Origin: Cloeon dipterum
Taxonomy: Eukaryota; Arthropoda; Insecta; Ephemeroptera; Baetidae
Length of the DNA: 64,000 bases
Assembly: GCF_949628265.1 (NCBI RefSeq)
Contig: NC_088789.1
Coordinates: forward strand, 13,880,886 to 13,944,885
Direction: 5' to 3'
Position 1 is the stretch's first letter, and every line of letters begins with the position of its first letter. This document shows, piece after piece, positions 20,066 to 52,079 of the stretch. Below the pieces are notes generated by a model that was not told the DNA's origin, made no database searches, and saw only the letters and a program-made list of their open reading frames with translations. The position numbers and the translations under genes were made by a program.

Positions 20066-22622
20066 CTGCAACAACATTCCAGTCGTGCTGAGCAACTTTC
20101 GTCAACATTGCATGTCCTGACCATAAAACATAATCAACTTGCGCCTCCAACATTCCCGATTAGTGCGATGGGAATGAAGAGTTAAGTCTTGTTAGTAAGA
20201 CGTTGCAGACCCACCCTCCCCCCTCCCTCAGCAACAATTGGGCGCACGTTAGTTTCTGCACACTGCAGACACAAACACACACGACCAAGAACAAATCATG
20301 CGTACATGCGACTGCCAGAAAAAAGCAATTGAAATGCGTGGGAGTTTTAATTAAAATTGAACTTTATTGGATGATGGGCGTCTGGATTGCCGCACATTTG
20401 TTCTCGCGAAAAACACCAGTACATTGTTCAAGTCTTATTCAAGTGTCACCACCATCAAGTCACAAAGACAGAGAGAAGAGAGATCATTTACAGCTAGGCG
20501 GCATGCAGTAAGTATCACTTTGTGCATTGGCTCAGGCGGCCAGCTATAGGTCCGTGTCGTTCGGCGTGAGTTCTGGCATTTCAGGCTCAGTGTTGGCGTA
20601 CACAATGTTGTCCTGAGCGTAAACTATGTTGTCTTGTGCGTACACAATGTTGTCCTGGTAGGCCGGCCTGATTTGCTGCAGCGGTCGCTTCACCTTCTTG
20701 GTCACCGTCGCTTTTTTGATGTTGCTCACCACTTTGTCCGGGTTGCGTGGTGCGGGGCCCGGGACGGTGCCAGTAACTTTGCCGCTCGCCTCCCGCTTGC
20801 GCATCACATAAGAGTATATTGTACTTTTGGGAATGTTTGTCAGGCTGGCCACCCGGCGATAGGAAATGCCCTTTTCCACTAGATCCATGGCCAGTTTCTT
20901 CTGCTCCAGTTGCAGTTCTACGCAAAAGTGGGCTTTGCTTTAGCTGCTCGGCCATATGCGACCGGAGTCGAGCTGATCAAATGCGTCCCTGGATTTTGAA
21001 TGTGGCATTCATTCATCAAAACGCTTTACATCGAGAGTCGCTAGACAGTATACTGCTAATTATTGTTATTGCCAAACAACAAAGTCAAAACACAAGTTAA
21101 TCTCCAGTCTGGAAGGAAGTAACAAACGTCATGCGCTCCCCCCTCACTATTGATCGATTGGAAGTAATGCCAAATTCAGAGCCAGGGCTTATTGACCAGC
21201 ACCCTCCGAAAGGGTAACTAACTAACCTTTGCTGTCCTCGCTCCACGCTACAGACCGGCTAAATTTTATTTCGCAGGCGTCTGCGTCCTCCTCCCAGGTT
21301 GACTCCAAGAGCTCAGCCCCATCTGGGGACACCATCATCCGAATTTCAGTCTTCATACCACTCCCCGATTTTTGTTTATTACCGACTGCCCAATTGTGCA
21401 TAGTTCATTTACTCTCAAGTTTGAAACTTTGGATAGACTCCCAGCTCAGCAAAGTTAGTAAAATCTAGGGTTATTATCAACAACGGTTTTCAAACTGCGT
21501 TCAATGCTTGCTTTTTGAGTTAGAACACACTCATATAAGCAGAAACAAAAACACACAAGGGTAACTCACCATCCAAAGTGCTAGTGTTCATGCATGGGGT
21601 CATCGAGGTCGGGGTCATGGTCATTCCAGAAGGGCCAGCCTGTGGTGTGCCTCTCGGCGGTGGGTAGTGCTGGTCTCCTACAAAGCTCTCAAACTCCTGA
21701 AAGCACGAGCACCAATATGTGGTTTAGTCTCTTTAAACTTGACGGAGTGCAACTAAATTACTTGAGAGGTTGTGTAGTCGTCATGGCTCACGTCTTCAAG
21801 ATCAGATACAGATTGCTCTTCCATTAATGAGATATCCTCCTCCAACTTGACCATTTGCTGAAAAATGTGTTTTGTTTTTAATATGCCACGTTAGGATAAG
21901 TATTCAGCTTACTTCATGGGAAGTATCCTGCTGGGAAGCATCGGGACTAGACTTTTCTTCGGTAGTCATGTTAACTGACACTGAAGGTGTGATATTATCT
22001 GGGTGGCTCTCGTCGTCATTAAGATTCTTCTCCGTTGCTTTTGTGACGGCAGCAGCCACCTTTTGCTGCTCATTCCCATACAATCCTCTTATCTACAAAA
22101 GATCAATAAAATACAAGATTGTAAATCAACGAATTTTGTGCAATTTCTTGATTTTAACGTTCTAAGAAAATATTAAGCCGAGCATCAAATAAAACATATA
22201 TAATAAAAACTGGCAATTATGTGTTAACCCTATATCCTTAACAAAATCGTTGAGAAACTAAATAAGATAGGAGTAAGTTAGAATACCTGCAACGCTTCTG
22301 CAGCTCGCAGTAGACTGTTCAGCTCCTCCTGAGTCACATTGACCTCTCCCCGGTACATGAAGTCAACCAAGGCGCGGACTTCCCAAAATCGCATGTCTTT
22401 CATGAATATAATGGGATGCTGGCAAGGATTTTGGCTGAGCAGTTGCTCAAAGTAGGTACTGCATGCCGAAAGGACCACCTTGTGGCATTTGACCATTTGT
22501 CCCTCGCAGGCTAAAGTAACGTCCACAAAGTTCTCATTAACCAGCAGTTTCGGGAACACGTTCTGAAGGTTCGACTGGTAGCTGTTCCAGCGAACGCAGA
22601 ACTGCTGGGATGAAGACCCCAT
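19209..22622 (-). CDS. BTB/POZ transcription factor with two alternative HTH-psq C-termini
   Basis: Nuclear DNA-binding regulator of the insect BTB 'ttk/bab' group. Common exons: 22622-22287 (BTB; QQFCVRWNSYQSNL, FVDVTLACEGQ, KVVLSACSTYFEQLL, FMYRGEVNV), 22092-21913, 21857-21762, 21696-21570, 21385-21227. The last common exon ends after codon base 1. It can join (a) 20917-20544, a terminal exon with an HTH-psq domain (LVEKGISYRRVASLTNIP, STIYSYVMRKRE), giving 423 aa; or (b) 20065-19879 plus 19353-19209, with a different HTH (LISRGLTFQAVSDKYNIP, STIRFYMARKG), giving 409 aa. Both close in frame. For path (b) an acceptor at 20116 is an equally in-phase alternative. The ATG is the first codon of its exon; a non-coding 5' exon ends at 22741. 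I cannot assign it to a named fly gene. Confidence 0.85.
19571..19782. mobile_element. Small hAT-like MITE in the BTB gene's last intron
   Basis: 212 bp with 13-bp perfect terminal inverted repeats, TAGAGGTCTCAGC at the left and its reverse complement at the right. Flanking octamers CTCATTTA (19563-19570) and CTCATAAA (19783-19790) agree at 6 of 8 positions, fitting an old 8-bp target duplication. The ends fit the hAT start consensus (T/C)A(A/G)NG. The inside is non-coding and contains several copies of a CCAGCC(A/G)CC-type word. Confidence 0.7.
20544..20917 (-). CDS. Alternative terminal exon A of the BTB gene (HTH-psq)
   Basis: Phase-1 acceptor at 20917 and stop codon at 20544-20546, with no good donor inside, so it acts as a terminal exon. 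After the HTH it encodes a Lys/Pro-rich linker and three tandem copies of the heptapeptide QDNIVYA from a 21-bp direct repeat around 20590-20660. Confidence 0.8.
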
Positions 22623-22740
22623 CTGGAAAAAAAAGGAATAACAGGTCCGTGAAACACCAGTGTCCGGCCCCGGGCGTCCAGCAGATCGGACGAGACTGTC
22701 CGAATCTTGGTGTCCGAGAGAGAAATTTTGAGCAACCCAC

Positions 22741-23202
22741 CTTTATCTTTTGTCGGTTGCACTCTCTCGGTGCACAATTTATCCCTTTGCTCTCAACAAA
22801 ATCCGATATTGTAGAAAACAACCATCTGAAGGGGCAGTGTTTGGCCACCAGGAAAGTATCAATATGGCCGCCGTGACGAACGACGCTGAGGCGGGGACAG
22901 CCGAAAGGCGGAATCTCTCGACTTCGGTCGTTTCCGCCAACCCATGTTTATCGATCTGCCAAGGTGAAGTTTGTGGAAACTGAGCCTTAATCAGCTGGAG
23001 AGCTGGGCATTTTTTGCAAAACGAGGTTTGCAGCTGCAGCTACCTAAGCATTACAAAGCACATTCACTGGCTAATATCCTCGATTCTGACTAAACGGTAT
23101 TTTGGTGTTTTCAATTCAATTAAAATTGTGCTAGCCACAAGTAAGATCACGTGCCTGATATTGTTCATTTTGCAGGCAAGTGTCGCGAGTGCTCGTCAAA
23201 AA
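22741..23202. promoter_or_regulatory. Divergent promoter region of the BTB-psq gene and Pex19
   Basis: The non-coding 5' exon of the BTB gene (donor GTGGGT, exon edge 22741, running to about 22870) and the Pex19 leader lie within a few hundred bases. The interval near 22860-22980 is GC-richer, includes ATGGCCGCC and a TATCGAT word near 22948, and has no obvious TATA box. A 5' intron for Pex19 may end at the TTTTGCAG just before its start codon. Confidence 0.4.
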
Positions 23203-27989: not shown

Positions 27990-30900
27990 TTAGTTGCTCA
28001 ACTCTCGCAGACTAGTCAGGAATCCACTTGGTGTCATAATATTGGTTGAACCTGAGAAATAAGCACATTGCTTGACTGCTTTTTAGGTTTCACTATTTGC
28101 TACACTCACCAATAATCACTTCCCAATTCTTCGTACTCTGAGTGACCTCATAAGCACAGCGCATTTCTGAGAAACTGATTCCACCCATTACGAACACAAG
28201 TAGTCGAGGGACATTCTTGACCGTCTGCTGGCTCTTGTCCTTGTGCCAATGGCCGTAGCGGGCACTGCAAACAAATTTATCAGACATGAACCAAGGTGAG
28301 GTCAAGAAGCACCAACCTGGAAGGTGCGTGGTAGCCTGTGTTTCCACCGGCACGGCCAGCAAGGTAGGGGAAGTGCTTGACATCCAACTTGTCTTCAATA
28401 CTGTCTTCCATGAGATCTTTAATGATAGGAGTCCAGCGGGACATCTGATAAGTCTGCTCTGTGATTCGCTCCTTTTTTGTTGGCTGCCAGATTTTCTTGC
28501 GATTTCCCTACAGAACAAGAGATATATTATGGTCGGTTAATTTATTAAAATCAAATTAGAGGCGGTTTTCACTAACATAAAAATTTAAATAACCAATTAA
28601 TGGGTAGATAAATAATTAATGTAGCAGAAAGGTTTACTTACATCAATAACAATATTGCAACCAAGATTTGCCATGTTCACGATCGTCTGCTTCTCCTCCT
28701 GGACTTGAGCGTGCTGAATGAGTTTAGTCAAGTTCTCGTCAGATATCCCATTCTTGCTGATGATGTAGAGCAAGATGATGCGGATTTTGTCATTGTTGCT
28801 GACGTTCTTGTCAAGAAGAATGGGCACAATATTCTTCATGTGGTCGCGGATTCGCTCGCCCTCAGCATCGGTGCCCATGGCCAAATCCTGCTCCACCTTG
28901 CAGAGCTTGTCGATGTTGTCCTTGTAGTTCTTCATGCAGTCCTCTGCCAGATGAAGGTGAACAGAGTACTTGGACAACTCCTTCTGATACTGAGGCATCT
29001 TTTTGATCATCTGTGACAGGTCTTTCATGCTTTGTTTGTCGCCGGAAGGCATTCGCTTGGATTCAGTGAAGCCTTTCAGGTTCTTGGTTACACTAGTGCT
29101 CACAACAGCGATGTGCTGATGTCGCAAATCAACCCACAATTCGTCGTTTTCGTCTAAAAGCACTTCCTTTTCAGGAGCATTTGCTGACGCTTCATACCTG
29201 AGAACATTTGTATTTTAGCCACTTCCATACATAAATTATCATCAATATGCATTAGGTGCGACTCAGTAAATTAATTGAAATTGAAAGTGATTTTGAGAGA
29301 ATGTTCTTTGGTACTAGCTTACTTATAGACGTCGTTTTCAATCGGCAGCAAGTCGTAGGCCATAGCTTGGAATGTCAACTCGTGAAGGAGAGGAGAAACA
29401 CAATCAAATCCTCGATCCAGAATCAGGAGCTGAGAGCGGGCCTTCTCAGGACCCTCTCCCATGGTGGGCTCGTCAGCCTTGTAGGCATCAAGTTTCTGCT
29501 GAACAATGGTGGCCAGCTCAGCGTTCTTGTCAAAATCCCTGCAAATTTTAGTCCATTAAGAATATTTATACTTAAAGGGGAATAATATCACTCACCCTCG
29601 GTAGCGCACTGAAGGATATTCGCCCAGTGTGGCGCAAAGAGTGGCGATTTGCTCTGCCATTCGTTCCATGTTTGCTGTTCGTCCACTTGATTTGTTAGGA
29701 TTGTACAGGTACTGGAAGGTGTCTGCACAATCAAGAGAGAACACCTGAAGGGATAAACAGAGTTATGTAACAAGTCACTTGTTAGGGGAAATTTTATACC
29801 TGGCTCTCATAGGGCAAAAACGCTATGTTAATTTCTTTCAGCGTCTTAATTTTGCGAGAGGCACAAGACTTGCACAATTCATTAAATAGCTCCTCTCCAC
29901 ACACTGAAAAGCATGCCGTTAGTGAGTTTTCATATAAACATAAATTTCTACTATCTAGCCATTCTGTTAGTTCCCAAAGTCGACTTATCGAGCAATTCCA
30001 AATGCAGAAAAAGATAAAAATGGCAAATTCAAATCACTCTTAGAAATGCATATTCAATAATTAATGTCAGGCGTCAAACCATCAAGAAAACCACCCTCTT
30101 GGTAAAAATCTAACCTGGCGCTCAATTGGAAGGACACAACAATTTATCTCTTCCAGAGCCAAAACAAACCTCTTGCCTAACCGGCTATTACAGAGCATTT
30201 GAAAAAGATCTTTTGGAATAGCTGAAAACAAATCGATACAAAATTAAAAGCATAAACATATTTCTGATACTGATATAAAATAAGTGAAAATTGATTTCAC
30301 CTTCAGTGAAGTAAACATGAGCACCGCGGTACATCGTGCGGTTTGGACTAGCAAAATCGTTCATCAGTGACTCCACAGACTTCTTTGTAGGAGTAATTAA
30401 ATAAACAGCCTCCATGGTGGGCAGTGGTTCTCTCCTCTTGTTGATGTCCTCTACGACTGAAATTTTGGCAGAAAAATTAAAAGCATTAATATCCAAATCA
30501 GAGATGGTGTATTTTATACCAATTTTTACATTATTATGTCATTATTACCACTGTGAAAATTATTTCTTTAATATAAACCAACTAACTAGTATAATTTATG
30601 TACATATTTATAAAACATTTTTTGACTCACTGGTGATTCCTTCTGCTGAGATGTCATGCATCTTGCAGCAGGCGGAGACCATCCTCATTGCAAGCTGATC
30701 AACAACCAGCACGCGCCAATCCACATCCTTGGCGTTTTTCTTTTGGCCTTTCTGCTTGATAACTTCATTCATTATTTCTGTAACGAAAAATCCTCCATTA
30801 GGAACTCAACAAGGAAAAAGGAAATTAAATTATTGCACATTGCCCTGCTTGTCCTTTGCACTGTTGACTGTATGTGTACATAATGCAGTGATATGACGTC

Positions 30901-31272
30901 ACACCCCATTGTGAACTTTTCGTTTTAACTTTTTTTTAACATTCTGTCATAGCAGAAAACTACCGAAAATTAGCCGAGAGGAAAATAAAAATCGCAATAT
31001 CTCTCAACACTGTCCATTCAAAGTGCCAAGCTTGGAAAAACAGAAAAAATAGAACCGAAAAAGTGATTATGACAGATAAGTCTTGAGGTTAACGCCCCCC
31101 TTATCAAAATTTCCATTTTTCTCGGCTCTACGAGAAGATCACACCAAAAATTAATCACACGCAGTTAAACAAAATGTTTAAATTTGTACTAGAGGTAAAA
31201 ATGTTTTCGTGGGTTGCAATAAACTAAAAGTTTTAATCACTTACTTTGACCGACCATCGCTTTGAGCGCCAT
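27990..31272 (-). CDS. Rop: Rop / Munc18-1 (STXBP1), Sec1/Munc18 protein of synaptic exocytosis
   Basis: Binds syntaxin-1 and templates SNARE assembly for vesicle fusion. Exons: 31272-31245, 30777-30631, 30456-30301, then either 30221-30115 or 29903-29800, then 29744-29596, 29538-29323, 29197-28642, 28507-28317, 28264-28110, 28051-27990. The protein is 587 aa with the lower exon or 588 with the upper, close to the family's usual length. Family hallmarks: [40 protein letters not shown] (split: [15 protein letters not shown] and VRYR), [78 protein letters not shown] and [11 protein letters not shown]. Start [10 protein letters not shown] matches fly Rop. The two alternative fourth exons are discussed as a finding. 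Confidence 0.97.
29800..29903 (-). CDS. Rop: Rop alternative exon 4b (canonical version)
   Basis: 104 nt, phase-1 in and phase-0 out, acceptor TTTTCAG and donor GTATAA. Encodes [20 protein letters not shown], then [14 protein letters not shown], nearly identical to fly Rop and mammalian Munc18-1 at this position. Confidence 0.92.
30115..30221 (-). CDS. Rop: Rop alternative exon 4a (divergent version)
   Basis: 107 nt, phase-1 in and phase-0 out, with acceptor TTTTCAG and donor GTTAGA. Encodes a 36-residue version including [20 protein letters not shown] and LPIERQ. It shares LF..LC.S, L.EIN, LP and a final Q with exon 4b but differs at most other positions. Confidence 0.85.
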
Positions 31273-46283: not shown

Positions 46284-47654
46284 ATGGATCACAGTCACCA
46301 CGGACACCACGGTCATCACGGACCACCTCCGGTTTCTTCAACCGTGGAATCCCTATTAGGCGCTGCGGAAGACACAACCGGGATGCCTCCTATGGACGCA
46401 TGCAGCCATATGAACATGGGCCACCACATGATGTCGATGTCTGTAAGTATGGGATGTGGTTTATTCATGATGAACAATAAAATAAATGTAGGTCACATTT
46501 AATTTTGTCGGCCGATCCTGAAATTTGAATATATGTATTATTTTTTTTATTTAATATTGAAAATATAAACTTTGTATGTTTTAATTTTTTATTTCATTTA
46601 TATTTATATTCCAACAGTTCCACTTTGGCTACTGCGAGGTCGTGCTCTTTGATTTCTGGAAGGTGCAATGTGTCAGTTCCCTCATCGGCTCAATGATTGG
46701 CATCATGATTATTGCTGCTCTCTACGAAGGACTGAAATACTACAGGTAGTGGTGCCAGATATCTATTGAGTATTATCTTTAATCTAGTTTGGTGATTTAT
46801 TCTATCCAGGGAGTACCTTTTCTGGCAATCAAACAACTCAATCCAGTACAGATCAGTGACCCCACCTGAAAAAGCTGGCAGCGCTGAAGAAGCAAGAGTT
46901 GTTCAGTAAGTAAAATTATACCAAAACATCTTCTCCTACGTTCATGACACTCGGTTGACTCAGAACTCTTCTGTGGTTCATTGCTTTGTCCATGGTTGCA
47001 TAAGTCATTTTCTTAATTCTCACATTAACGCTTAAATAAAGCAGAACCATAATAAATATTACTTTGAAACTAAATAATTGCGGAATTAAAAACAATGTTA
47101 TTTTACAAATTGCATTAATTAACAATTTTATTACATCTCTAAAATCACAAAAGTAAACAACAATTTCCATCCCCTTGTACAATTATCAAAACTTATGCTT
47201 GCTCTTTTCCTTGCATGTGCAGTATGGTGCCCGAAATCATTCATCGGCAACCGTAAGTATTTTCAAATTCTTACTATTGCATGATTTAGTTCACTGGATA
47301 TTTATAGGAAAATTAAATTACTCCGCAGTAATGGGATTAGAAATTTTGATCTGATTAAAGGGTAATAAGCTCAAGTCAATTGAGAAACAATGAAGCACAC
47401 TGTTAAAATATTTTAACCAATTTAGTAAAGTGCATACTTTTTTTGTTAACAGACCAACAATGCTGAGCGGCATTCATGCCCTCCAGACTGCTCTGCACGT
47501 GCTTCAGCTAGTGATAAGCTACCTATTGATGCTTATTTTCATGACCTTCAACGTATGGCTCTGTTTGGCGGTCATTGTTGGTGCTACTATTGGTTATTTT
47601 TTGTTCGGATGGAAAAAATCCGTAATCGTGGACGTAACCGAACATTGTCATTAA
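46284..47654 (+). CDS. Ctr1A: High-affinity copper transporter Ctr1, copy A
   Basis: Trimeric plasma-membrane Cu(I) importer. Exons: 46284-46442, 46618-46745, 46810-46905, 47223-47252, 47453-47654; 204 aa. The N-terminus is His/Met-rich ([13 protein letters not shown], then [11 protein letters not shown]), the extracellular copper-collecting segment. TM1 follows [18 protein letters not shown]2 carries the copper-selective MxxxM motif (MLIFM). TM3 carries GxxxG (GATIG). The C-terminus ends EHCH, the HCH metal-binding tail. The short fourth exon (30 nt) lies in the cytosolic loop and has no counterpart in copy B. The start follows a splice acceptor by one base. AATAAA at 48535 may mark the 3' end. 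Confidence 0.95.
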
Positions 47655-48903: not shown

Positions 48904-50276
48904 ATGGATGACGAGTGTAGAATGATGGTGACAATTTAAATTTAACATTGATTTTTAAGCCAATCCTTACTCACGATTTTTGTTGCCTCTTAGATGTATT
49001 TCCATTTTCGCTACTGCGAAAGGGTGGTCCTCTTTGAAGGATGGGAGATCAGAGATGTTGGAACCCTCATTGGATCTATGATTGCGTTCATTGTGATGGC
49101 CTTCTTGCATGAATGTATTCGATTTTACAGGTATATGAAGTGATTAAGCTGGAATTTAAAATATCAAATAATGGCTTTTAAGCCCTGCGCTGATTTACCA
49201 AAGGACGAATTTTTTAAACTTATTCCAACTCTAACTGGGATTCTGCTCTCTAACCTTTTTATTTTTATTTCACTTAATTGTCCATGAAAATATTTGTAGC
49301 TCTTTTTATTGTGTTAAATTTTTTATTTAAGTTCAAGACCTTTGACCCAAGTCGTTTTCTTGACTTTGAAATTTCCGTTTGATAACAAGTCATTCGTGGG
49401 CCCGAAATGCTTTCACATTGTTTTTTAACCTCTGCTCAGTACATCTCATGGGCTATTGAGCTAACCGAGTTCCATCACATCACTGAGCGAATAACTGGCG
49501 CCTGAATGGCCCGTTGAGGAGCTTGGGCTCATTGTGGCCATCTTTTTCCACCCTGTATGGAGCTTTTTTTTATTGAAGCACGCCAGACATTTGTTTTGTC
49601 CCTAAAGCTTCTGGATAGGTTTGCAAACCAGCTACAGTAGCAAATCGGCCTACATCTATTTGCTGGTCCACTATACTCACCGTTGCAAAATGTATACATA
49701 CGGTGTTTGTTGGATGTGGTTGGCAAATGATCGTCATTTTCAAATTTGGCCAATCACCAAGTTATGTTGTTTCAGAATGAAACTCCCACAATATAAAATA
49801 CATTAAATTGAAGATTAGTATAAAAATAAAAAATAAAAAAATATTTATAAAAAAACATGTACAGGGAGCATCTATACTCAAAATGCAAAATGCCACAATG
49901 CAAACCAGAGGATCCAGACACCAAATATGGTACATCCCAGCAGCCACTCCATTCCGCTGAGCAATCTGCAGAGTAAGTATAAAAGTTGAAGACAAATTTG
50001 TTAAAAATCCAATTTGTCTATATTTTTGCAAGATATTAACTGCATCAAATTGTTTTTAGGAAAGAGAGACACGCAATACTTAGCAAGATTCACTTTCTGC
50101 AAACTGGACTTCATGCATTGCAGTTAACCCTTAGTTACCTACTGATGTTAGTAGTCATGACCTACAACTTCTACCTTGGCATATCTGTTTTGATCGGAGC
50201 TGTGATAGGATACTACGCTTTTGCATGGAGACGATCCAAGTTCATTTCTGTCGCAGTTGATGATTGCTGCCATTAG
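48904..50276 (+). CDS. Ctr1-family copper transporter, copy B (tandem paralogue)
   Basis: Exons 48904-48927, 48994-49130, 49865-49972, 50060-50276; 161 aa. TM1 follows YFHFRYCERVVLFEGWEI; TM2 has MxxxM (MLVVM); TM3 has GxxxG (GAVIG); the C-terminus ends DDCCH. The boundary of the TM1 exon falls at the same place and phase as in copy A (...FYR|EHLY versus ...YYR|EYLF), proving tandem duplication. The extracellular N-terminus is cut to MDDECRMM, with no His-rich segment, and copy A's 30-nt exon is absent. A tight core promoter of its own suggests separate regulation. In flies a comparable second gene, Ctr1B, responds to copper starvation through MTF-1; orthology to it is unproven. AATAAA at about 50515. 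Confidence 0.9.
49432..49556. repeat. Dispersed repeat, copy B (Ctr1 copy-B intron 2)
   Basis: Homologous to 8722-8862 in the same orientation, starting AACCTCTGC(A/T)CAG and ending in TGTGGCCATCTTTTT. It is somewhat shorter because of small gaps. Lies in the 734-bp second intron. Confidence 0.6.
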
Positions 50277-51202: not shown

Positions 51203-51366
51203 CCGGTTAAATTTGGGCGCACCGGTTTCAGCTGGTAAAATAGGCGCGCCGGTTGCAGCTGGTAAAATGGGCGCGCCAGTTGCAGCTGTTTAAATGGGTG
51301 TGCCGGTTGCAGCTGGTAAAATGGGCGTGCTGGTTGCAGCTGGTAAAATGGGCGTGCCGGTTGCAG
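51203..51366. repeat. 27-bp minisatellite array 1 inside the hAT element
   Basis: About six units of the form GTTGCAGCTGGTAAAATGGG followed by CGTGCCG, with GGCGCGCC in some units. Same orientation and unit as array 2. Confidence 0.85.
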
Positions 51367-51677: not shown

Positions 51678-52079
51678 TTGTTTACCGCATTAGTGTCAAC
51701 CACCTGTCTCGGCTGTCTCTGTGTTGTGATTGAGTTTATTATTGCTTGTTTTGTTATTATTTATTTTGTTACTGTTGTGTTTGTTTTAAGTATGTGCAAT
51801 GTGGGAGTGACGAGTGAGCGAACGACAGCTGTTAAAATGGGCACGCCGGTTCCAGCTGTTGAAATGGGCGCGCCGGTAGCAGCTGGTAATATGGGCGGGC
51901 CAGTTCCAGCTGTTAAAATGGGCGGGCCAGTTCCAGCTGATAAAATGGGCGGGCCAGTTCCACCTGTTAAAATGGGCGCGGCGGTTCCAGCTGATAAAAT
52001 GGGCGCGGCGGTTCCAGCTGATAAAATGGGCGCGCTGGTTGCAGCTGTTAAAATGGGTGTGGCGGCTCAAAAATCATGA
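51678..52079 (+). other. 133-codon open frame within the hAT element, spanning minisatellite array 2
   Basis: Begins MFTALVSTTCLGCL and has a strongly hydrophobic N-terminal 45 residues, then about nine copies of a nine-residue unit of the KMGAPVPAV type encoded by the 27-bp minisatellite (51826-52070). Because the unit is a multiple of three and lacks stops, the opposite strand is also open. Not a transposase. Whether it is translated is unknown; I think chance is more likely. Confidence 0.3.
51826..52070. repeat. 27-bp minisatellite array 2 inside the hAT element
   Basis: About nine units of CCAGCTGTTAAAATGGGCG plus a variable GC-rich half (GGCCAGTT, CGCCGGTT or CGGCGGTT). Separated from array 1 by about 460 bp of AT-rich sequence. 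Confidence 0.9.

What the first reader, a model, noticed from the sequence alone, without database searches (positions are those of the whole stretch)
29800..30221. Mutually exclusive exon pair in Rop/Munc18 swapping about 35 residues at the end of domain 1
Two adjacent exons (30221-30115 and 29903-29800) both accept phase 1 and end in phase 0, and each fits between the exon ending at 30301 and the one starting at 29744. Using either gives a full-length frame (588 or 587 aa). Using both shifts frame and soon meets a stop, so they must be exclusive. They are homologous (LF..LC.S, L.EIN, LP...Q) but agree at only about a third of positions. The lower exon is almost the fly/mammal sequence; the upper is divergent. 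The segment lies at the end of domain 1, the region of Munc18 that helps grip syntaxin, so one gene could make two SM proteins with different SNARE binding. I am not aware of this in the well-studied Rop or Munc18-1 genes.
Basis: partly seen in the sequence, partly recalled or inferred. Interest (0 to 1): 0.85.

Follow-up and report, generated by a model that had tools for sequence, protein, structure and literature searches.

The report
Duplicated swap exon in Munc18 gene
An animal gene for nerve signalling and secretion carries two alternative copies of one exon, so it can probably make two versions of a core membrane-fusion protein that differ in the patch that holds the tail of its partner syntaxin; no transcript has yet been seen.

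Summary
The minus strand holds a complete Rop/Munc18 gene (31272-27990). Two homologous exons, U (30221-30115) and L (29903-29800), fit one slot. Either gives a full protein (588 or 587 aa); both together stop after 167 aa, neither after 114. U is not chance: among 897 open segments only L and its shorter form score higher, and 0 of 5000 shuffles reached its score. It keeps 13 of 13 positions hydrophobic in three references; 10 of its 14 residues identical to L use different codons. L fits human STXBP1 exon 6 in phase, position and inferred length. The slot is Munc18-1 residues 109-143, in the domain-1 part that takes the syntaxin N-peptide rather than the closed-syntaxin cleft. U keeps F115, L130 and E132 but changes 11 of 23 invariant residues. 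Most likely it is a real mutually exclusive pair tuning N-peptide docking, with frame loss removing wrong products. No transcript or relative could be examined, so expression, exclusivity and function are inferred. Five searches aimed at it listed no earlier report; gene-database models could not be checked.

The parts
31245..31272 (-). Rop/Munc18 exon 1, coding part with ATG
30631..30777 (-). exon 2
   Evidence: tblastn
30301..30456 (-). exon 3, ends in phase 1; weak donor AAG|GTGAAA
   Evidence: donor scores
30222..30300 (-). intron 3, 79 nt
30115..30221 (-). U: divergent alternative exon, 107 nt, encodes [36 protein letters not shown] with the split first codon
29904..30114 (-). intron between U and L, 211 nt, with CTAAC branch-like motifs 67 and 19 nt before L and a GCATG 13 nt before L
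29800..29903 (-). L: canonical exon, 104 nt, encodes [35 protein letters not shown]; lowest-scoring donor of the gene, CAG|GTATAA
29745..29799 (-). intron after L, 55 nt
29596..29744 (-). shared downstream exon 5, starts in phase 0 (VFSLD...)
29323..29538 (-). exon 6
28642..29197 (-). exon 7
28317..28507 (-). exon 8
28110..28264 (-). exon 9
27990..28051 (-). exon 10, coding part through the stop codon TAA
   Evidence: which counted one base more, past the stop

Best explanation
U and L are a pair of mutually exclusive exons, made by an old tandem duplication of one ancient exon of the exocytic SM protein gene Rop/Munc18. Each mRNA takes one of them. Transcripts with both or neither lose the frame early and would be removed (frame loss shown; removal inferred). 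L makes the standard protein. U makes a second SM protein that is identical except for residues 109-143 (Munc18-1 numbering): the end of domain 1, which carries the outside groove for the N-terminal peptide of syntaxin, plus the start of domain 2. U keeps the hydrophobic positions and the residues that I recall as the pocket (F115, L130, E132, with I127 changed to V) but changes the surface around it (D/E112 to K, E117 to M, K120 to N, K128 to L, T129 to A, K/T131 to E). The most likely effect is a changed affinity or partner choice for syntaxin N-peptides with the closed-syntaxin cleft largely unaltered (inferred). Exon choice is probably set by regulators acting on two weak donors, that of exon 3 and that of L (inferred). 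My separate estimates: U is a used alternative exon 0.88; used exclusively with L 0.82; effect mainly on N-peptide docking 0.5.
For: Frame logic and intact GT-AG sites. Homology of U to L, squid Sec1 and Munc18-1: scores 53, 75 and 52, 0 of 5000 shuffles each; a 51-residue stretch with U and shared flanks finds squid Sec1 at E 1.5e-12 and Munc18-1 and -2 at about 1e-7 among PDB sequences; the full U isoform scores 466.1 bits on Pfam Sec1 against 477.5 for L, cut-off 30.7. Signs of protein-level constraint: identical bases by codon position 15, 22, 12 of 35; 10 of 14 identical residues use different codons; neutral decay from L to the same divergence stayed open in 2212 of 20000 simulations and 0 of those reached the observed similarity; 13 of 13 positions hydrophobic in L, squid and Munc18-1 are hydrophobic in U, 0 of 20000 shuffles (the one inserted residue of U left out). 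The slot is an ancient exon: human STXBP1 donors at c.325 and c.429 imply a 104-nt exon 6 over codons 109-143, like L. The three published sequence criteria for mutually exclusive exons are met (PMC3228551 passages). N-peptide site on domain 1: PMC4224468, PMC3693963, PMC9623535, PMC7470827 passages. Natural differences in the N-peptide groove separate SM classes: Vps33 fills both pockets, with Arg-115 and Leu-129, and is said not to bind N-peptides.
Against: No transcript evidence. No relative: two viral-contig scans, two genome-contig scans and one plasmid search found none, so constraint on U over time is inferred from one genome. U alone (36 aa) has no Pfam match even at E 10, while L alone matches Sec1 at E 0.019; tblastn at E up to 1 did not link U and L. 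Codon-usage score of U (-6.9 bits) is below every constitutive 36-codon window of the gene (minimum 6.0) and 59 per cent of 2713 random open segments score at least as high; but L, certainly an exon, also scores low (-0.2). No docking/selector pairing among the three introns and no unusual fold. That U keeps F115, L130 and E132 argues against a complete loss of N-peptide binding; the pocket assignment is recalled, not from a call.
Confidence: 0.78

Rival explanations
1. U is a dying or dead duplicate exon: once alternative, now rarely or never spliced in, with the ORF and sites surviving by chance.
For: No transcript or comparative evidence; codon usage of U looks like non-coding open sequence.
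Against: The copy is strongly diverged (49 of 105 aligned bases identical), so it is not recent, yet it is open; its acceptor (9.4) lies within the in-sample range of the constitutive ones (7.9-13.9) and its donor (6.3) within their leave-one-out range (4.4-7.8); it keeps 13 of 13 hydrophobic positions; 0 of 2212 open neutral simulations match its similarity to L.
Confidence: 0.1
2. U is a real alternative exon but not strictly exclusive: transcripts with both or neither are made on purpose as unproductive mRNA to lower Rop dosage, and the U protein is minor.
For: Both-in and both-out give stops after 167 and 114 aa. Rop acts in a dosage-dependent manner in fly neurotransmitter release (title of Wu et al. 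1998 in the reference list of PMC7503973, and its summary there, passages).
Against: Two frame-intact homologous exons with signs of protein-level constraint on U are not needed for a simple off switch.
Confidence: 0.08
3. The pair is real, but the difference acts elsewhere: at the domain 1/domain 2 border (I135C, A136C, F137V, Y140I, S142R) or on another domain-1 partner, not on N-peptide docking.
For: The residues recalled as the pocket are kept in U, while 5 of the 11 changed invariant residues lie at 135-142, at the domain border (domain limits PMC9623535). [quoted passage not shown]
Against: The other changes lie in domain 1 (112, 117, 120, 128, 129, 131), where the N-peptide binds.
Confidence: 0.3

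Closest known systems
Mutually exclusive exon clusters of arthropods (Dscam, muscle myosin heavy chain)
   Same: Tandem homologous exons of like length and phase in one gene, one per mRNA; in insect Mhc one gene with swap exons does what a gene family does elsewhere (PMC2257972, start of abstract in the listing).
   Different: Here a single pair, in a cytosolic SM protein that chaperones SNAREs; no competing RNA pairing was found and no transcript has been seen.
Rop / UNC-18 / Munc18-1, -2, -3 (exocytic SM proteins)
   Same: The gene is a full-length member with ten exon slots and matches squid Sec1 and Munc18-1 along its length. L sits in the same exon frame as human STXBP1 exon 6 (inferred).
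   Different: Vertebrates have three genes and C. elegans has the paralogue uncp-18, while Rop is the sole fly homologue (PMC10697816 passages). A swap exon for residues 109-143 was not listed in the five searches aimed at it.
Class I versus class II SM proteins (Vps33)
   Same: The N-peptide groove of domain 1 decides whether a Qa-SNARE N-peptide can bind; Vps33 fills both pockets (PMC3693963 passages).
   Different: Vps33 is a separate gene in a tethering complex; here the variation would come from splicing in one gene and the residues recalled as the pocket are kept.

Membership tests
Mutually exclusive exon pair | Neighbouring exons of about the same length (difference up to 20 aa) | tested here: met
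   107 and 104 nt, one codon apart; criterion from PMC3228551 passages
Mutually exclusive exon pair | Same splice-site pattern and reading frame, no in-frame stop | tested here: met
   GT-AG, phase 1 in and phase 0 out for both, both open
Mutually exclusive exon pair | Sequence homology (minimal score of 15 per cent in PMC3228551) | tested here: met
   score 53 against a self-score of 183 for L, 29 per cent (my reading of the paper's relative score); 0 of 5000 shuffles
Mutually exclusive exon pair | Transcripts contain exactly one of the two | not testable with these tools
   No RNA data; frame loss with both or neither shown
Docking/selector (competing RNA pairing) type | Complementary elements between the flanking and internal introns | tested here: not met
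   z 1.31, 0.98 and -0.42 for the three intron pairs against 300 shuffles each; region fold z 0.2 against 60 shuffles; one genome only, so weak elements could be missed
Steric or U2/U12 incompatibility type | Donor to branch point under 50 nt, or mixed spliceosome types | tested here: inconclusive
   U-L intron is 211 nt with CTAAC 67 and 19 nt before L; a CTGAC 167 nt before L starts 44 nt after the donor, but is far for a branch point; all sites look like the major type by eye; the 50-nt criterion is from PMC5740500 (passage)
SM protein of the Munc18/Rop family | Pfam Sec1 match over nearly the whole chain above cut-off, best matches to exocytic Munc18/Sec1 | tested here: met
   466.1 (U) and 477.5 (L) bits against 30.7; best PDB sequences squid Sec1 and Munc18-1
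N-peptide-binding (class I) SM protein, U isoform | Pocket residues of domain 1 kept | tested here: inconclusive
   F115, L130 and E132 kept, I127V, surrounding charges changed; pocket residue list recalled; no binding test

The most novel reading that the evidence does not exclude
One Munc18 gene makes two SNARE chaperones by swapping only the N-peptide docking face, so that splicing does the job that the Munc18-1/2/3 gene family does in vertebrates. The duplication is older than the residues that mark L: at the 7 sites where L differs from squid, U never shares the L residue and 3 times has the squid one. So the second form would be an ancient part of the secretory machinery that some well-studied lineages, flies among them (from recall of fly Rop), would have lost.
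Probability: 0.3. Interest if true: 0.8.

Novelty: new member of a known kind. Interest (0 to 1): 0.56.

Why it matters
How the syntaxin N-peptide mode and the closed-syntaxin mode of Munc18 divide the work of release is disputed (review PMC4224468, passages). A natural splice pair that changes the N-peptide face and leaves the rest of the protein untouched would be a ready-made separation-of-function experiment. It would also show a single-gene route to the diversity that vertebrates get from three Munc18 genes.

Tried and rejected
Chance ORF: rejected by the window-wide pseudo-exon scan and by shuffles. Recent duplicate: rejected by divergence and by codon pattern.

Relatives: two viral-contig scans, two genome-contig scans and one plasmid tblastn gave none, as expected for an animal gene in collections of viruses and prokaryotes. 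No genome is held for the window. The species is not known; that it is an arthropod is my inference from recalled fly-like sequence features and was not tested.

RNA pairing between introns: none. Regulator motifs: of the patterns scanned in three introns, GCATG occurred once, 13 nt before L; one TTGTTT and three YCAY matches also occurred and the RBFOX hexamer TGCATG did not. No chance expectation was computed. Codon usage: uninformative, since L also scores low.

Donor strength: the first score made U look weaker than the constitutive donors, but it was circular because those donors trained the model. With leave-one-out the seven constitutive donors score 4.4 to 7.8, exon 3 2.6, U 6.3 and L -1.2, so only exon 3 and L are weak.

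Four-taxon likelihood for the age of the duplication: the tree with U next to squid was best in each of three gap placements, but by only 0.65 to 0.91 log units, and no tree was excluded. The site pattern in the novel case is therefore suggestive only.

Closeness of U to other SM families, U minus L in bits: SCFD1 +6.0, VPS33A +3.1 and +3.2, the other three Vps33 rows +0.1 to +0.3; squid Sec1 -28.7, Munc18-1 about -30, Munc18-2 -21.8, Munc18-3 -27.0, Monosiga Unc18 -6.2, Sly1 -3.1, Vps45 -4.1. U is not a Munc18-3-like copy; the small gains on SCFD1 and VPS33A were not followed up.

Literature: ten searches were made. Five were aimed at a swap exon in Rop, unc-18 or STXBP genes (listings showed 2 of 2, 2 of 2, 20 of 27, 6 of 7 and 15 of 23 papers). 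Three were aimed at the N-peptide pocket, one at human splice borders and one at exon prediction (10 of 3938 listed). Of 13 papers I saw passages found by search terms, of no paper the whole text. Subscription journals and gene-database annotation were not searched. One search translated L in the wrong frame and was not used.

Full report
WHAT IS THERE. The minus strand from 31272 to 27990 holds a complete Rop/Munc18 coding region. The exons were assembled at GT-AG borders. The lower protein matches squid Sec1 (1epu, 903 bits, residues 1-587) and rat Munc18-1 (868 bits) and scores 477.5 bits on Pfam Sec1 against a cut-off of 30.7. Between exon 3 and exon 5 lie two candidate exons, U at 30221-30115 (107 nt) and L at 29903-29800 (104 nt). 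Both enter in phase 1 and leave in phase 0. U alone gives 588 aa and L alone 587 aa. Both together stop after 167 aa, and neither stops after 114 aa. The name Rop, and the idea that the animal is an arthropod, rest on recall; the calls show only that the closest PDB sequences are exocytic Sec1/Munc18 proteins.

IS IT CHANCE? No. U against L scores 53, against squid 75 and against Munc18-1 52; 0 of 5000 shuffles reached any of these, with shuffle maxima of 23, 24 and 18. In the whole window, both strands, 4495 AG...GT segments of 90-125 nt fit the frame and 897 are open. Averaged over the three references, L scores 147.3, a shorter form of L 124.0, U 60.0, a shorter form of U 41.7 and the next segment 3.0. 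A 51-residue stretch with U and its shared flanks finds squid Sec1 at E 1.5e-12 and Munc18-1 at about 1e-7; part of that signal comes from the flanks. Results on the other side: the 36-residue peptide of U alone gave no Pfam match, while L alone gave Sec1 at E 0.019, and tblastn at E up to 1 did not link U and L, though blastp of open window fragments did at E 4.4e-4. The full U isoform scores 466.1 bits on Sec1.

IS U UNDER CONSTRAINT? One genome allows only an indirect answer. Of 35 aligned codons, identical bases number 15, 22 and 12 at positions 1, 2 and 3. Of 14 identical residues, 10 use different codons. If L is mutated at random to the same base difference, 2212 of 20000 copies stay open and 0 of these reach the observed similarity or identity. 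The 13 positions that are hydrophobic in L, squid and Munc18-1 are all hydrophobic in U; 0 of 20000 shuffles do that (the one inserted residue of U was left out, and A, C and Y were counted as hydrophobic). Codon usage does not help: U scores -6.9 bits and L -0.2, and both lie under the lowest constitutive window, 6.0.

AGE. [quoted passage not shown] If these are consecutive donors, exon 6 is c.326-429, 104 nt, codons 109-143, in the same phase as L. So the exon unit is old. At the 7 sites where L differs from squid, U has the L residue at 0, the squid residue at 3 (109, 111, 126 in Munc18-1 numbering) and another at 4. At the 28 sites where L equals squid, U agrees at 14. This suggests that the duplication came before the changes that mark L. 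From recall, not from a call, fly Rop shares several of the L-type residues, which would make U lost in flies. A four-taxon likelihood test agrees in direction but excludes nothing.

WHAT THE SEGMENT DOES. By alignment to 3puj, whose 594 residues are taken as numbered from Met1, the slot is residues 109-143. Domain 1 is 4-134 and domain 2 starts at 135 (PMC9623535, passages). The syntaxin N-peptide binds on domain 1 on the side away from the cleft: Asp and Arg side chains meet oppositely charged regions, and a Leu or Phe enters a hydrophobic pocket (PMC4224468, PMC3693963, PMC9623535, PMC7470827, passages). An insertion at Leu118 of Munc18-1 left the measured syntaxin binding intact, and the authors note that mutations in this region affect binding to the syntaxin N-terminus (PMC3061876, passages). 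E132A of Munc18-2 is listed among disease mutations that disrupt cytolytic vesicle fusion (PMC9492833, passage). That F115, I127, L130 and E132 form the pocket is recalled; no call gave a residue list. U keeps F115, L130 and E132 and has V for I127. It changes 11 of the 23 residues that are the same in L, squid and Munc18-1: C110I, E117M, K120N, I127V, K128L, T129A, I135C, A136C, F137V, Y140I, S142R. It also reverses charge at 112 and 131 relative to L and squid. So the fold and pocket floor should survive while the rim and the start of domain 2 differ. This favours a tuned or re-aimed N-peptide site, with an effect at the domain border as the main rival. No structure was modelled.

HOW THE CHOICE MIGHT BE MADE. 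Frame loss makes wrong combinations unproductive; [quoted passage not shown] No pairing between introns was found. The donors of exon 3 and L score below the leave-one-out range of the seven constitutive donors, while that of U lies within it. This would suit an activator for L or for exon 3, but ten donors are few. A GCATG, the recalled motif of RBFOX proteins, lies 13 nt before L; with one site in one genome this is only a lead.

KNOWN OR NEW. The pair meets the three sequence criteria of the published predictor of mutually exclusive exons: length, splice pattern with frame, and homology (29 per cent relative score; PMC3228551 passages). In that paper 90 of 16180 exons annotated as constitutive or differentially included on the fly X chromosome share these features. 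Rop was not found as a word in that paper's main text, nor STXBP, Munc18 or syntaxin in the main text of the human survey PMC5740500. The five searches aimed at it listed no swap exon in this gene (two of these listings were capped). Gene-database models were not available, and automated annotation may already list such isoforms.

VERDICT. Its kind is known; its place, the N-peptide side of an SM protein, is what makes it worth following. Expression, exclusivity and function are unproven.

Noticed in passing
about 46284-47654 and about 48904-50276, + strand: Two neighbouring copper transporter (Ctr) genes in tandem; their last exons are about 51 per cent identical over 73 residues and both match Pfam Ctr. 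Gene starts were read by eye and are approximate.
   Followed up: partly
1-763, - strand: Three neighbouring open stretches with similar cysteine patterns (34-40 per cent identical); the one tested, 479-763, matches Pfam CBM_14, chitin-binding peritrophin-A.
   Followed up: partly
51214-51366 and 51826-52057: Two arrays of a 27-base repeat (5.7 and 8.6 copies); the second lies in open frames of over 100 aa on both strands.
   Followed up: partly
22278-22742, - strand; 20544-20939, - strand: An open stretch with a BTB/POZ domain, and a separate one with a homeodomain-like (HTH_23) match below its cut-off.
   Followed up: partly
29896-29898 (third codon of L), - strand: L itself has Gly where U, squid Sec1 and Munc18-1 have Pro (residue 111), so the canonical exon is also slightly unusual here.
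   Followed up: no
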